Of a DNA stretch of 64,000 nt, positions 39,804-55,727 are shown piece by piece. The stretch is taken from the NCBI GenBank assembly GCA_022360015.1, contig JAKSDQ010000158.1, forward strand, positions 1 to 64,000. Direction: 5' to 3'. How positions within the stretch are numbered: position 1 is the stretch's first letter; each line of letters opens with the position of its first letter. The notes beneath the pieces were generated by a model. The model ran no database searches. It saw only the letters and a program-made list of their open reading frames with translations, and was not told the DNA's origin. The DNA comes from Cytophagales bacterium. GTDB taxonomy: Bacteria; Bacteroidota; Bacteroidia; Cytophagales; Cyclobacteriaceae. The position numbers were made by a program, and so were the translations under genes.

Positions 39804-39915
39804 GCTGTTGCGTAACTCTGTGACTCTTTGTGCCTTGGTGCCTCCGTGGTGAAAAATGGTTAACCACGGAGGCACCAAGGCACAAAGCATTTTGCCGAAA
39901 ACGTTGTGCAACAGC
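39804..39915. repeat. Nested-palindrome element copy A (MITE-like)
   Basis: 25-bp perfect arms 39826-39850/39863-39887 (CTTTGTGCCTTGGTGCCTCCGTGGT), 12-nt loop; outer 13-nt imperfect IR 39804-39816/39903-39915. Confidence 0.9.
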
Positions 39916-40104
39916 CACAGACGCCCGCACGATGTGGTATGAAGTTATTTAAATTTGAGGTTCGATCCCATCAATCGCGGAAACCTATGGTCGAATGTAA
40001 GGCTGTTTTTTTAGGATGTAAACAGAGGGTTTCGGCCGGATTACCGATCAATTTTTTGTAATTTCCGTTATATTCAAATCGAAGTAAACATTAAACTGAA
40101 TCAA

Positions 40105-50250: not shown

Positions 50251-50485
50251 GATTTTATGCACCTTTCAGGAAGCCACTAGTGTGTCCTATATGGAAAGAT
50301 CTGGGAATATTACTATTTTTCCTTTTCTTTCTCCCATCAAAAATCAATAAAAACAATACATGGCTAAGAAGGACTATTATCCTTCAGGTTACCAAGCATT
50401 GAATATTTGTATATAGTAGTGATTTTAAATTTTGATCGATTTATGTTGTTGCTATAAGCATAGGCATCCCAAGTTTTGGTTAAGG

Positions 50486-52600
50486 ATGAAAAAAATTGTT
50501 TACATTTTATTGTTGTTGGCTTTTACACCTGATATTCAGGCTCAGGAAACCAATATAGATCAATTACAACAGGATTTGCATCTGGCTACAAATGATACAA
50601 TGCGGTTACAGGTACTGTTGAAATGCATTGATTATTATTACAGAAATAATCCTGATACCGCCCTGGCCATTGGGTACCGATCAGAAAAAATTGCCCTAAG
50701 ACTACAGAATGAGGTATCCCTGGCCCACGCTGAAAGGGAGATAGCAAGACTGTTGGTACGGAGGGCAGACTACCGTCAGGCGCTAGCTTATATAACCAGG
50801 GCCCTGGCAAGGGAGAAAAACCTGGGCAATAAAATAAACATTTCCAAAGCGCATAATATCATCGGCGTCCTTTACTATGAGCAAAGTAATTTTGTGAATG
50901 CGCTAAAACACTACCTCGAGTCATTAAAAATATACGAAGAATTAGAAAATAAAGATGGTATAGCATCTATATACAATAATCTGGGGCTGTTGTACAAAGA
51001 AAAAGGTGAAACTGACAGGGCCCTGGAATATTATAAAAAGTCACTTGAAATAAACAAATTGCTAAATGACAGCATTGGCCTCGCTTATGGCTACAATAAC
51101 CTGGGTGTTGTTTACCGGAGAAAAGGCAATTATAAAGCTTCTCTTGAATATTTTAATAAATCTCTGCATATAAAGGAAGCGTTGGGAAATAAAGAAGGGA
51201 TGATTTCAAGCCTGCTAAATATTGGCATCACTTACAACAAACAGGGGCATTTTGAAGAAGCCAAAAAAGTAGCATTTAGAGGTCTTCAATTAACACAGGA
51301 ATTAAATAGTGTTGCCAGAGAAGCCAGTACGTACAGCATATTGGCCGAAACCTATCTGAAAATGGGTAATCCGCCTACGAGTATCGTCTATGCTAAAAAT
51401 GCCTATGACATTGCCAAGGAAATTGGTAAAATTGACATCGTACAGGAAACCACAGAAATAAGCTACAAGGCTTACAAACAAATGCGAAATCACGAAAAAG
51501 CCCTTCAATTTTTTGAAATTTCCCAACACCTGAAAGATAGTTTAACGCAGGTTCAAAAAAACGCCGATCTCAAAAACCTCAGAGAGAATTACGAGATCGA
51601 GAAACAACAAATGCAAATTGAATCACTGAACAAAGATCGTATCATCCAGGAAGAACAAATTCAGAGACAATCGATGCAGCAGAATGTATTGGTCGTGGTT
51701 TTGACCTTTCTGGCTATCATTGTTTCTATTTTGTATAAAAACAATCGCCGTAAACAAAAGATTAACAACCTGTTAACCCAGAAGCATAAAGAAATTGAAT
51801 TGAAAAACACCGAATTGGCAAGATTAAATCAGGAGATTGTCAATCAAAATCAATCCATTAGTATTCAGAAAAACAACCTGGAAGAGTTAAATCACATCAA
51901 AAACAACTTGTTTACGATTGTATCACATGATTTCCGCAGTCCACTAAAATCAATTCAAGGCTTTCTGCATCTACTTAGCCTAGGTGCATTAACCCGGGAG
52001 GAGATGAAAAAGCTGGTAGAAGATCTTACTATAAAAGTGGACATGACCACAGATTTTCTTGAAAACCTGTTGACCTGGGCCAGGAATCAAATGTACAAGA
52101 TTGAAAGTAAGCCTCAGCCCGTGAATCTGAAAAAAATCGCTGATGATAACGTAGCACTGTTAAAGCCGGTTGCGGAGAAAAAGGATGTGAAACTTATTGT
52201 AGAAATATATGATAATTTTGAAGCTTTTGCAGATGCCAACATGATCAACCTGGTCATCAGGAACCTGGTTGTTAATGCCATCAAGTTTACTTCAGAAGGT
52301 GACGAGATCAGACTTACCGCCCACCGGGAAGGGGCGAAAGGTGTTTTCTCTGTGCATGACAACGGCATAGGCATCGATGAAAGGATATTATCGAAGCTAT
52401 TCGAACTGGAGACCTACTCCACCACCGGCACTGCCAATGAAAAGGGTACCGGGCTGGGATTAGTACTTTGCAAGGACTTTGTAGAAAAAAATCACGGCTC
52501 GATCTGGGCTACCAGCGAAGTAGGTGTGGGAAGTGTCTTCAGCTTTAGTCTTCCTCTCACGCCTGCCAGCCACGAGGTGCATGAGCAGGTTATTTCCTGA
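50486..52600 (+). CDS. TPR-containing sensor histidine kinase
   Basis: TPR arrays; one TM; HisKA IVSHDFRSPLKSIQGFL; HATPase DNGIGIDERILSKLF, GTGLGLVLCKDFVEKNHGSIW. Confidence 0.93.
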   Translation: MKKIVYILLLLAFTPDIQAQETNIDQLQQDLHLATNDTMRLQVLLKCIDYYYRNNPDTALAIGYRSEKIALRLQNEVSLAHAEREIARLLVRRADYRQALAYITRALAREKNLGNKINISKAHNIIGVLYYEQSNFVNALKHYLESLKIYEELENKDGIASIYNNLGLLYKEKGETDRALEYYKKSLEINKLLNDSIGLAYGYNNLGVVYRRKGNYKASLEYFNKSLHIKEALGNKEGMISSLLNIGITYNKQGHFEEAKKVAFRGLQLTQELNSVAREASTYSILAETYLKMGNPPTSIVYAKNAYDIAKEIGKIDIVQETTEISYKAYKQMRNHEKALQFFEISQHLKDSLTQVQKNADLKNLRENYEIEKQQMQIESLNKDRIIQEEQIQRQSMQQNVLVVVLTFLAIIVSILYKNNRRKQKINNLLTQKHKEIELKNTELARLNQEIVNQNQSISIQKNNLEELNHIKNNLFTIVSHDFRSPLKSIQGFLHLLSLGALTREEMKKLVEDLTIKVDMTTDFLENLLTWARNQMYKIESKPQPVNLKKIADDNVALLKPVAEKKDVKLIVEIYDNFEAFADANMINLVIRNLVVNAIKFTSEGDEIRLTAHREGAKGVFSVHDNGIGIDERILSKLFELETYSTTGTANEKGTGLGLVLCKDFVEKNHGSIWATSEVGVGSVFSFSLPLTPASHEVHEQVIS

Positions 52601-52745
52601 AAACCTAAGATAAACTGCCACAAAAAAAGGATCAATGAGCGGATCCCTCCATATGATCTCTTTAAGTTGATAATAATCAATAATTTATATGTTTAAACCC
52701 GGCGTAAGCTTTGGCATGGCGCAGGTCTCACCCAACCCCAAGGCA

Positions 52746-52932
52746 CAAGCGTATCGTGGGTGTTGCACAACGTTTTATACAAAATTCTTGGTGTCTCTTT
52801 GTGTCTTGGTGCCTCCGTGGTTAACCATTTTTCACCACGGAGGCACCAAGACACAAAGAGGCACAGAGGTTTTTGCCTTTAAATAAAAATGCAGGCTTAT
52901 TCTTAAGTTGTGCAACACCCACGATACGCTTG
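52746..52932. repeat. Nested-palindrome element copy B (MITE-like) with perfect 26-bp terminal inverted repeats
   Basis: Outer arms 52746-52771/52907-52932 (CAAGCGTATCGTGGGTGTTGCACAAC); inner 27-bp arms 52795-52821/52834-52860. Confidence 0.95.
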
Positions 52933-53006
52933 CGTTAGTTGTTGTTTTTCCTGCGGAAGCGGTTATTTGAAAACATCATAGAGCAATGATATCGCCAAAG
53001 CAACTG

Positions 53007-55727
53007 CTAGAAACGTACGCCAAGGGTAGAATTCCAGGTTGTACCAAATCCATAAAATCCCCTGTTCTCATTAAACCGGCCTTCTCCGGTGATATTAGAG
53101 TCCAGCTCAGCGATATACTCTTCGTCCAAAACATTGTTAATATTTAAACCCCAGGTGAAATCCAACTTACCGACCCGGAAATCATAATAAATACCGGCAT
53201 CCACCAGATTGTAAGAAGGAAGTTTCACAGCCTGATTGCCAGGCGTCAGGAAAAGGTCATCATTGGCCACATCATATTCCGCATAGAGGTCATCTGCGAA
53301 ATACCAGCTTCCATACAACCTCAAATCTTTTAATAGTTCATAAGTTACACCGATTCTGGCAGTGGTTTGGGCCGCATCTCCGACTTTTACACCGTCCAGA
53401 AAGTAAGTGAAATTTCCCTGATTAACTTGGTTATCATCGAATATGCTGGTATTTATATTACCTCCGTAGGTCCAATCCCCTATAGAAAACATGCCATCGA
53501 TTGTAAGGTTACTTATCGGTCTGAAAGTCATGTCTACTTCTATTCCAGTGTGAATCTGGTCAATACCTGCCAGATTCGCTGTTCCTTCGACACCATTGAC
53601 ATCAACTGACCTATTTAAAAAACGGTTGGTCCATGATGTTCTATATAAATTCAGATTGGCGCTGAATATGCTGGACCGGTAGCCATAGCCTAGTTCAGCT
53701 CCAAATACCCTTTCATTTTCGACATCCGGATTTACAGTATTTAAAAAGTTAATAAATACATTGTCAAAAATAGGTTGTCTGCTGTAAAAACCTACATTGG
53801 CAAAAACATTATGGCGTTCATTAATGTTATAATTAGCACCCCCCTTTACATTGCCACCCAGGAAATTTTCGAAATCCGTTTCCTGTTTAGGATCTCCGTC
53901 TGCTTCGGTGTCATCCCCATCCAGGTAATTGAAGTAGTCGATCCTTTTGAATCCCTGATTGGAAAGTGACGTCGATACAAAGGCTGAAAGGGGTCCTTGC
54001 GTATATTCTAATTGCCCGAATAACCCCAGCCATTGCACAATGCCATCGTTATTATAGTTTATCGGGGCATCATTTCTCAGATTGGCAATAGCGCTTGACT
54101 CCCTTTCCCCGGTTACAAACCGTCCGGCAAGATTAATATTATCATCGGTAAAAAAAGCATCTGCACCCAGCAGGTTATCTATTCTTTGGTAATGAATACC
54201 CCTGTAATGCCGGGCATCTATTCCGGCAATCAGCGTGAATCGATCGCTCAGCTCATGGGTCAGGTTGGACAGTACGCCTACCCAGTTGTGCGAGTTGATA
54301 GAGGCCCTTCTTACTAACCCTTCATTGCTTGTATTCACAAACTTATCAGCAAAAAAGCCCTCACTATTATCTAAATCAGGATTTAGCGCTCCCCAGGTCA
54401 CTTTAGGATCCCCGAAATCAGGCACGTCTTCGCCCATGTTCCACCGTCTGATATCTTCAAATCTTACCTGTCCGTTCTCATCCCTAAAAACCTCATCCGT
54501 GTCAAATCTACTGTTCAGCCTACCTCTCGGACCTGTTCCACCACCTCTGCCAAAGGATATGTATGCCGTAGTAGCTAATTCCGTTCTATCTGAAATAGTC
54601 CAGTAATGATTAAAGAATATTTTGGGTTTATGATAAAAGTTTCTTCTCCAGTTAAATACCTCTCCATCCAATTCTCCCCACAGGTGATTATATTTTAATC
54701 CTCTTTCCTGGAAGGTCTCCAAAGTAACCTCATCAAATCTGCCTATCCTTCTCTGATTGTGCCACTGTGGCGCTCCAATCGCAGTAAAATGAAGTGAATG
54801 CTTTTCATTAAATACTTTGGCTATAGAGGCAAAATAAGAATATGCCCTGAACTGTGTACCATCAATGTATCCATCTCCCCTTGTATGAGTACCTTGCAGG
54901 CTTATTGCCCAACCGTTCTCGGTCAAACCGGTAGAGGTGGAAAATGAAAATTTGTGGTAGCCATCATTTCCAATTGAATAACCCAATCTGTTTCCTCTTT
55001 TCATTTCAGCGGCATTGGTAATAATGTTAATGGTACCACCCACAGAATTAATAGCCAGTTTAGAAGCACTCAGCCCCCTTTGCACCTGAATATTGCTGGT
55101 TACATCACTTAAACCAGCCCAGTTTGACCAGAAAACCCAACCGTTTTCCATATCATTGACTGGCACCCCATTGATTAATACGGCGGTATTTCTTTGATCG
55201 AATCCGCGCACATTGATCCGGGAATCGCCAAATCCTCCACCTTGCTTGGTAACATAAATGGAAGGTGTGGATCTTAAAATCTCAGGAAATTCCTGGTTAC
55301 CGATCTTAGCTTCGATCTCAGAACCTTTGATGGTAGAAACTGCTACGGGTGTTTTCCTGTCTATAGCCACAGAGGCAATTATTTCTACCTCCTTCAGCCC
55401 TACGGCACTGGCCCCAAGGGCGACAGTGCCCACATCAATCGTTTGTCCGTCGATTACCTTAACAAACAATTCCTGATTTTCATATCCTACATAGGAAATT
55501 ACTACTACCTGATCTCCGGCTGCCAATCCGGATAAAGTAAAACTACCGTTGATGTCAGTTGTAGCGCCTTTTGTTGTGCCCTTAAGCACTACCGTAGCCC
55601 CAATTAATGCCTCTTGATTTTCGGCATCCAGAACAGTTCCGGTGACTGTCCCCTGCGCATATACTACCTCACTTCCCAATAAAAGCAGCAGCATACCCAT
55701 TGAAAAAAATAGTAGACTTTTTTTCAT
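53007..55727 (-). CDS. TonB-dependent receptor with carboxypeptidase-regulatory-like N-terminal domain
   Basis: GTVTGTVLDAENQEALIGATVVLKGTTKGATTDINGSFTLSGL; plug domain EILRSTPSIYVTKQGGGFGDSRINVRGFDQRNTAVLINGVPVND; beta-barrel C-terminus. Confidence 0.95.
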   Translation of the reverse strand: MKKSLLFFSMGMLLLLLGSEVVYAQGTVTGTVLDAENQEALIGATVVLKGTTKGATTDINGSFTLSGLAAGDQVVVISYVGYENQELFVKVIDGQTIDVGTVALGASAVGLKEVEIIASVAIDRKTPVAVSTIKGSEIEAKIGNQEFPEILRSTPSIYVTKQGGGFGDSRINVRGFDQRNTAVLINGVPVNDMENGWVFWSNWAGLSDVTSNIQVQRGLSASKLAINSVGGTINIITNAAEMKRGNRLGYSIGNDGYHKFSFSTSTGLTENGWAISLQGTHTRGDGYIDGTQFRAYSYFASIAKVFNEKHSLHFTAIGAPQWHNQRRIGRFDEVTLETFQERGLKYNHLWGELDGEVFNWRRNFYHKPKIFFNHYWTISDRTELATTAYISFGRGGGTGPRGRLNSRFDTDEVFRDENGQVRFEDIRRWNMGEDVPDFGDPKVTWGALNPDLDNSEGFFADKFVNTSNEGLVRRASINSHNWVGVLSNLTHELSDRFTLIAGIDARHYRGIHYQRIDNLLGADAFFTDDNINLAGRFVTGERESSAIANLRNDAPINYNNDGIVQWLGLFGQLEYTQGPLSAFVSTSLSNQGFKRIDYFNYLDGDDTEADGDPKQETDFENFLGGNVKGGANYNINERHNVFANVGFYSRQPIFDNVFINFLNTVNPDVENERVFGAELGYGYRSSIFSANLNLYRTSWTNRFLNRSVDVNGVEGTANLAGIDQIHTGIEVDMTFRPISNLTIDGMFSIGDWTYGGNINTSIFDDNQVNQGNFTYFLDGVKVGDAAQTTARIGVTYELLKDLRLYGSWYFADDLYAEYDVANDDLFLTPGNQAVKLPSYNLVDAGIYYDFRVGKLDFTWGLNINNVLDEEYIAELDSNITGEGRFNENRGFYGFGTTWNSTLGVRF

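What the first reader, a model, noticed from the sequence alone, without database searches (positions are those of the whole stretch)
52746..52932. Nested-palindrome element, copy B: hairpin inside perfect 26-bp terminal inverted repeats
Outer arms CAAGCGTATCGTGGGTGTTGCACAAC...GTTGTGCAACACCCACGATACGCTTG are perfect over 26 bp and enclose a perfect 27-bp hairpin with 12-nt loop. A 187-bp noncoding unit with TIRs plus an internal palindrome, related to copy A in inverted orientation 13 kb away, looks like a nonautonomous mobile element. Conserved arms with divergent spacers suggest selection or recent gene conversion on the palindromic parts.
Basis: seen in the sequence. Interest (0 to 1): 0.65.

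Follow-up and report, generated by a model that had tools for sequence, protein, structure and literature searches.

The report
Nested-palindrome repeat family, over 100 copies
The stretch is one well-preserved copy of an old, non-coding hopping element (a hairpin inside matching ends) that is scattered more than a hundred times through this bacterium's genome, and its inner hairpin belongs to a sequence class found in many unrelated bacteria and some archaea.

Summary
Copy B is a full-length member (about 193 bp, 52742-52934) of a dispersed family. The outer-arm motif occurs 87 times in this genome, 0 times in its only held congener and once in 245 other genomes of the family. Sixty-six copies score at least 100 bits. 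Forty-one near-full-length copies share one consensus with ends RGCGCAAGCGTC..GACGCTTGYGC. Mean pairwise identity is 78%, so the amplification is old. Copies A and B lie in a region collinear with the congener, which has no copy there: dispersal, not inversion.

A non-autonomous, MITE-like element is the best reading, but two MITE features fail or stay open. No target-site duplication is detectable, and no autonomous partner or Y1 transposase was found.

New: the interior is exchangeable (a second core occurs between the same ends). The main core, built of NRAGRCAC octamers, is a free-standing hairpin class seen across many bacterial phyla and in Methanothrix. Here it sits inside a lineage-specific element.

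The parts
52742..52934 (+). Copy B: whole family unit (full-length member)
   Evidence: family HMM match, 207 bits, E 5.6e-63; 100% with own query, 40 scored homologous places in the genome
52746..52771 (+). left outer arm (TIR), perfect over 26 bp; family consensus ATRGCGCAAGCGTC(C)CGTGGSTGTTGCACAAC
   Evidence: terminal base frequencies over 31 full copies
52907..52932 (-). right outer arm (TIR), perfect complement of the left arm
52772..52794 (+). left spacer (GTTTTNGACAAAATTC... type), conserved in the family (0.905 consensus frequency)
52795..52860 (.). core hairpin: 27-bp perfect stem (52795-52821 / 52834-52860), 12-nt loop; arms made of NRAGRCAC octamers; imperfect extension to 52780-52875
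   Evidence: cross-phylum class
52861..52906 (+). right spacer (TTTTCGCCTGTAAAATAAAAATACAGGCACATTCTTAAG type)
39816..39930 (-). Copy A: internally deleted copy (left arm + core; right spacer missing, degenerate right arm CTGTTGCGTAAC just outside)
   Evidence: family HMM 116 bits; sequence
50432..52600 (+). upstream neighbour of B: TPR-containing histidine kinase; B lies 142 bp past its stop
   Evidence: Pfam HATPase_c 4e-25, HisKA 1.9e-7
53007..55727 (-). downstream neighbour of B: TonB-dependent receptor, convergent with the kinase gene, so B lies between two gene 3' ends
   Evidence: Pfam Plug 5.6e-15, TonB_dep_Rec 1e-13

Best explanation
Copy B is a full-length member of a lineage-specific, non-autonomous, TIR-bounded repeat family of about 195 bp (MITE-like). 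Shown: more than 100 dispersed copies and fragments share the same roughly 30-bp ends, the same asymmetric spacers and the same inner hairpin, and conservation stops sharply at the ends. The same ends also enclose a second, unrelated interior palindrome. The copies are old, and many are truncated or internally deleted. Inferred: the family spread when an enzyme acting in trans recognised the about 30-bp ends, the interior being passenger DNA that happens to be palindromic. That enzyme is now absent, or too different to be recognised here. The core hairpin is a member of a much wider free-standing hairpin class that became incorporated between these ends and was amplified with them. Today the copies are probably mostly inert, tolerated 3' of genes, and possibly transcribed as stable RNA hairpins (inferred from position only).
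For: Copy number: GTTGTGCAACA 102 against 4 for the reversed control; core arm 179 matches at <=3 mismatches against 0; outer arm 87 against 0; 66 copies of >=100 bits and 100 copies or fragments in the loci fetched. Sharp shared ends ATRGCGCAAGCG..CGCTTGYGCYAT at 31 loci. Common asymmetric consensus. Second interior between the same ends (L039, L044, L100, L105, L106). Congener has 0 copies and none at the two syntenic sites. Old: mean pairwise identity 0.776, best pair 0.892. Context: 26 co-directional, 24 convergent, 6 divergent sites; median 62 bp to gene 3' ends against 158 bp to 5' ends.
Against: No target-site duplication of 2-9 bp stands out over shuffled pairings. No autonomous element: the only inward-facing pair of perfect ends 2.3 kb apart (C255) encloses ordinary genes and is two separate small copies. 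No Y1 transposase in the genome. No base-precise empty site: intergenic DNA is not alignable with the congener (73% identity in genes). The assembly is a draft of 340 contigs, so a high-copy autonomous element could be collapsed or missing.
Confidence: 0.62

Rival explanations
1. REP/TIRtron-like element: the palindromic ends are processed as single strands by a HUH (Y1) transposase of the RAYT/TIRYT kind, which has since been lost from this genome.
For: No TSD, as expected for single-strand HUH transposition; preference for gene 3' sides as in REPs (PMC3733652); long partly self-complementary TIR families tied to Y1 enzymes are described (PMC3733652), and a Bacteroidetes subclass has atypical flanking structures with copies elsewhere in the genome (PMC6006769). 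The congener carries 7 Y1_Tnp genes.
Against: Y1_Tnp is absent from the genome with the most copies and also from another core-bearing one-contig genome, G276. Presence differs only moderately (32 of 34 core-positive against 26 of 36 core-negative genomes). None of 20 Y1_Tnp loci has an octamer hairpin within about 1.5 kb, and the congener Y1 locus examined (L327) has no such ends.
Confidence: 0.2
2. Selected RNA or DNA element: the nested hairpin is kept for function (transcript 3' end, mRNA stabiliser, protein-binding site), and mobility is historical or irrelevant.
For: Position near gene 3' ends, very stable fold, core stem 96.8% paired with some two-sided changes.
Against: Two-sided changes only slightly exceed shuffles (7 against 3.7; 16 of 500 shuffles as high); within-copy arm matching barely exceeds between-copy matching; many copies lack an arm or the core; spacers as conserved as outer arms; no Rfam family in the window.
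Confidence: 0.1
3. Palindromes arising and growing in place by replication template switching, with similarity between copies due to ectopic gene conversion, without a transposase.
For: Loop in both orientations relative to the outer arms (46 forward, 14 reverse); octamer-sized length changes in the arms; frequent deletion derivatives.
Against: Common asymmetric spacers and one shared boundary at many unrelated loci require dispersal of a unit. Template switching probably explains later changes within copies, not their spread.
Confidence: 0.08

Closest known systems
Bacterial MITEs, e.g. the IS982-derived MITE of Cardinium (Bacteroidota; PMC9769881)
   Same: short, non-coding, TIR-bounded, dispersed, lineage-specific
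   Different: here no parental IS and no TSD were found; interior is a palindrome and exists in two unrelated types; copies are old
RAYT-associated REP/BIME repeats (GTAG and CGTC superfamilies; PMC3733652)
   Same: high-copy intergenic palindromes, preference for convergent and co-directional sites near gene 3' ends
   Different: unit is about 195 bp rather than 20-40 bp; no GTAG or CGTC tag enrichment around the core hairpin class; no Y1 transposase in the genome
TIRtrons / TIRYT-associated TIR families (PMC3733652; subclass 2.1 in PMC6006769)
   Same: long, partly self-complementary TIRs that occur as repeat families
   Different: no Y1 gene between or near these ends in this genome
Nested palindromic repeats of Volvox carteri organelles (PMC2670323)
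   Same: palindromes inserted within palindromes making larger composite repeats in intergenic DNA
   Different: organelle repeats of about 50 nt with unrelated sequence; here a bacterial chromosome and a TIR-bounded unit

Membership tests
MITE (IS-derived) | short non-coding unit bounded by TIRs | tested here: met
   about 195 bp, TIR about 30 bp
MITE (IS-derived) | many dispersed copies with shared ends in unrelated flanks | tested here: met
MITE (IS-derived) | target-site duplication | tested here: not met
   no excess of exact duplications of 2-9 bp at any boundary offset over 31 full copies; a 2-bp AT target cannot be told from the TIR
MITE (IS-derived) | autonomous IS with the same ends | tested here: inconclusive
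   none found by end-pair search; draft assembly of 340 contigs
REP/BIME (RAYT-mobilised) | RAYT (Y1_Tnp) gene in the genome | tested here: not met
   PF01797: 0 matches in own genome, controls ring
REP/BIME (RAYT-mobilised) | 20-40 bp hairpin with a GTAG or CGTC tag | tested here: not met
   unit about 195 bp; tags not enriched beside the core hairpin class
TIRtron / TIRYT family | TIRs flanking a Y1 transposase gene | tested here: not met
   no Y1_Tnp in own genome; congener Y1 locus L327 lacks these ends
structured RNA family | match to an Rfam family or clear covariation | tested here: not met
   0 Rfam matches in window; weak covariation
ERIC/IRU, Correia, RUP and similar named MITE-like repeats | sequence identity to the named consensus | not tested
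   no reference consensus set on hand; listed from general knowledge only

The most novel reading that the evidence does not exclude
The core is a member of a single, so far unnamed class of self-spreading hairpins, with arms of tandem NRAGRCAC octamers, present from Bacteroidota through Cyanobacteria and Planctomycetota to methanogenic archaea. It spreads without a resident Y1 transposase and repeatedly ends up inside other TIR elements, which then carry it along.
Probability: 0.25. Interest if true: 0.7.

Novelty: new variant of a known kind. Interest (0 to 1): 0.42.

Why it matters
The unit itself is another MITE-like repeat family. Two points lift it above routine. The interior between the same ends is exchangeable and layered: core inside TIR element, which in some copies lies inside further palindromic repeats. 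And the core hairpin recurs as a free-standing repeat in distant phyla and in archaea, for which no description was found in the papers searched. If one mechanism spreads that hairpin everywhere, it is a widespread mobile palindrome class without a known enzyme, and this genome (over 100 copies, congener with none) is a good place to test it.

Tried and rejected
Inversion of 39.8-52.9 kb between A and B: rejected, collinear with the congener. Precise empty site in the congener: not obtainable, intergenic DNA unalignable. Autonomous element at C255:26121-28404: rejected, ordinary genes between two separate small copies. Small repeat-like contig C278: a normal gene. Empty sites inside another repeat (flanks of L088/L105): all copies of that outer repeat that could be judged were occupied. 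Core-less copies as ancestral empty sites: mostly deletion derivatives with differing breakpoints; two (L034, L049) could be either. Nesting of the octamer hairpin inside outer inverted repeats as a general rule: rejected; only 6 of 73 loci of other organisms score above what 99% of control positions reach, and most of those are a second octamer hairpin. Possible intragenic insertion in L031: judged by eye, the element lies upstream of the likely protein start. Outer-arm motif in viral contigs: 68 exact 16-mer hits, about what chance would give by my estimate. Outer-arm motif in other species' genomes: 0.

Full report
OBSERVATION. The sequence is as described. The outer arms 52746-52771 and 52907-52932 are perfect over 26 bp. 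The inner stem 52795-52821 / 52834-52860 is perfect over 27 bp with a 12-nt loop. The fold is far beyond shuffles (z -15.9). Copy A is inverted relative to B, but the family model shows A to be an internally deleted copy on the minus strand, 39816-39930.

FAMILY. A search of the window's own genome (7.3 Mb, 340 contigs) with B found many homologous places. The exact outer-arm 11-mer GTTGTGCAACA occurs 102 times against 4 for its reversed control. A 24-base outer-arm pattern occurs 87 times against 0. The core arm occurs 179 times at <=3 mismatches against 0. An HMM from 18 copies finds 100 distinct copies or fragments in the loci fetched, 66 of them above 100 bits. Forty-one near-complete copies align along their whole length. 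The consensus is RGCGCAAGCGTCCCGTGGSTGTTGCACAAC-GTTTTCGACAAAATTC-core-GAGGTTTTCGCCTGTAAAATAAAAATACAGGCACATTCTTAA-GTTGTGCAACASCCACGGGACGCTTGYGC. The spacers make the unit asymmetric, so orientation can be told. Conservation stops at the ends, with AT on both sides as the last preferred bases.

AGE AND SPREAD. Mean pairwise identity is 0.776 and the best pair 0.892, so no recent burst is visible. The only other held genome of the genus has no copy. The region 38-57.5 kb is collinear with it at about 73% identity, with no copy at either syntenic site and no inversion. Among 245 further genomes of the family the outer-arm pattern occurs once, at the three-mismatch limit, as often as the control. 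No exact outer-arm match was found in the species-wide contig collection (the own genome may be left out there).

ARMS VERSUS SPACERS. Across 41 copies the spacers are about as conserved as the outer arms; only the core arms are somewhat higher. Arms are not clearly more alike within a copy than between copies, and two-sided compensatory changes exceed shuffles only weakly. This gives little support for selection on pairing or for gene conversion. The loop occurs in both orientations relative to the outer arms (46 forward, 14 reverse), and arm lengths change by octamer units. Both are signs of rearrangement within the palindrome.

MOBILITY TESTS. Dispersal of a defined unit is clear. The mechanism is not: no TSD of 2-9 bp is detectable, no Y1_Tnp gene exists in the genome (controls ring), and the one candidate autonomous arrangement is not one. 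Y1_Tnp is found in 32 of 34 core-bearing and 26 of 36 core-free genomes of the phylum, but 20 Y1_Tnp loci show no octamer hairpin nearby, so a RAYT origin is neither shown nor excluded.

INTERIORS AND LAYERS. The same ends enclose a second, unrelated interior palindrome in L039, L044, L100, L105 and L106. Some copies lie inside a larger palindromic repeat with arms CCCCTCGAGGGCATAGCCGTCAG, and some of those near further ends of the type GGGGCTGTCCAATAAG. Twenty-five of 30 loci fetched for an exact core arm have an outer-arm motif within 160 bp, against 3.8% of background windows; a few cores stand alone (L132, L133, L159).

THE CORE CLASS. The arms are tandem octamers NRAGRCAC. The arm pattern occurs in 35 of 396 genomes of the phylum, with no control match in any listed genome. 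There it usually stands alone. In another genus of this family it lies inside unrelated ends GAGGCTGTCTCATAA. Searches of paper full text for six octamer strings found nothing; text search for sequence is a weak test.

CONTEXT. Copies lie between co-directional (26), convergent (24) and rarely divergent (6) genes, nearer to 3' ends (median 62 bp) than to 5' ends (158 bp) (genes here are ORFs of at least 100 aa), as reported for REPs (PMC3733652). B lies between a histidine kinase gene and a convergent TonB-dependent receptor gene.

VERDICT. A real, old, lineage-specific, MITE-like family. Strict membership as a MITE is not claimed, because the TSD test failed and no partner was found. It works like a non-autonomous transposon; the enzyme is unknown. 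The most interesting part is the widespread core hairpin.

Noticed in passing
L217-L296; pattern scan over named genomes: A hairpin class with arms of NRAGRCAC octamers occurs in many bacterial phyla and in Methanothrix; no description found in the papers searched.
   Followed up: partly
L039, L044, L100, L105, L106: Same outer ends as copy B but a different interior palindrome (AACGCGTGCCCTCTCAGCGATGAGCACGCGTT type): a second core between the same ends.
   Followed up: partly
L088, L105, L125, L196, L199: A larger palindromic repeat (arms CCCCTCGAGGGCATAGCCGTCAG) enclosing the element; some copies lie next to ends GGGGCTGTCCAATAAG, similar to GAGGCTGTCTCATAA ends in another genus.
   Followed up: partly
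L065, L070, L072 (genome G043): In another genus of the family the octamer hairpin sits inside unrelated inverted repeats GAGGCTGTCTCATAA..TTATGAGACAGCCTC.
   Followed up: partly
G235:C1:1061888-1063890 (L061, L069, L071 and others): Octamer hairpins in a tandem array with a spacing of about 108 bp or multiples of it.
   Followed up: no
L008:1754-1793, L025:1402-1439, L047:1341-1387, L051:1434-1472: Another short palindromic repeat, AGTCATACTATGACT / AGTCATAGTATGACT, recurs in this genome near these elements.
   Followed up: no
L047, L054, L089, L133, L205, L211:2688-2850: A further AT-rich palindromic repeat (TTCTGCGGATGGGAGCAACGCTGTTGGGAAACTACTATATAAC..) is found inserted in core arms and beside outer arms: nesting in both directions.
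   Followed up: no
G000 versus G001: The congener carries 7 Y1_Tnp genes and no element copies; this genome has none of the former and over 100 of the latter.
   Followed up: partly
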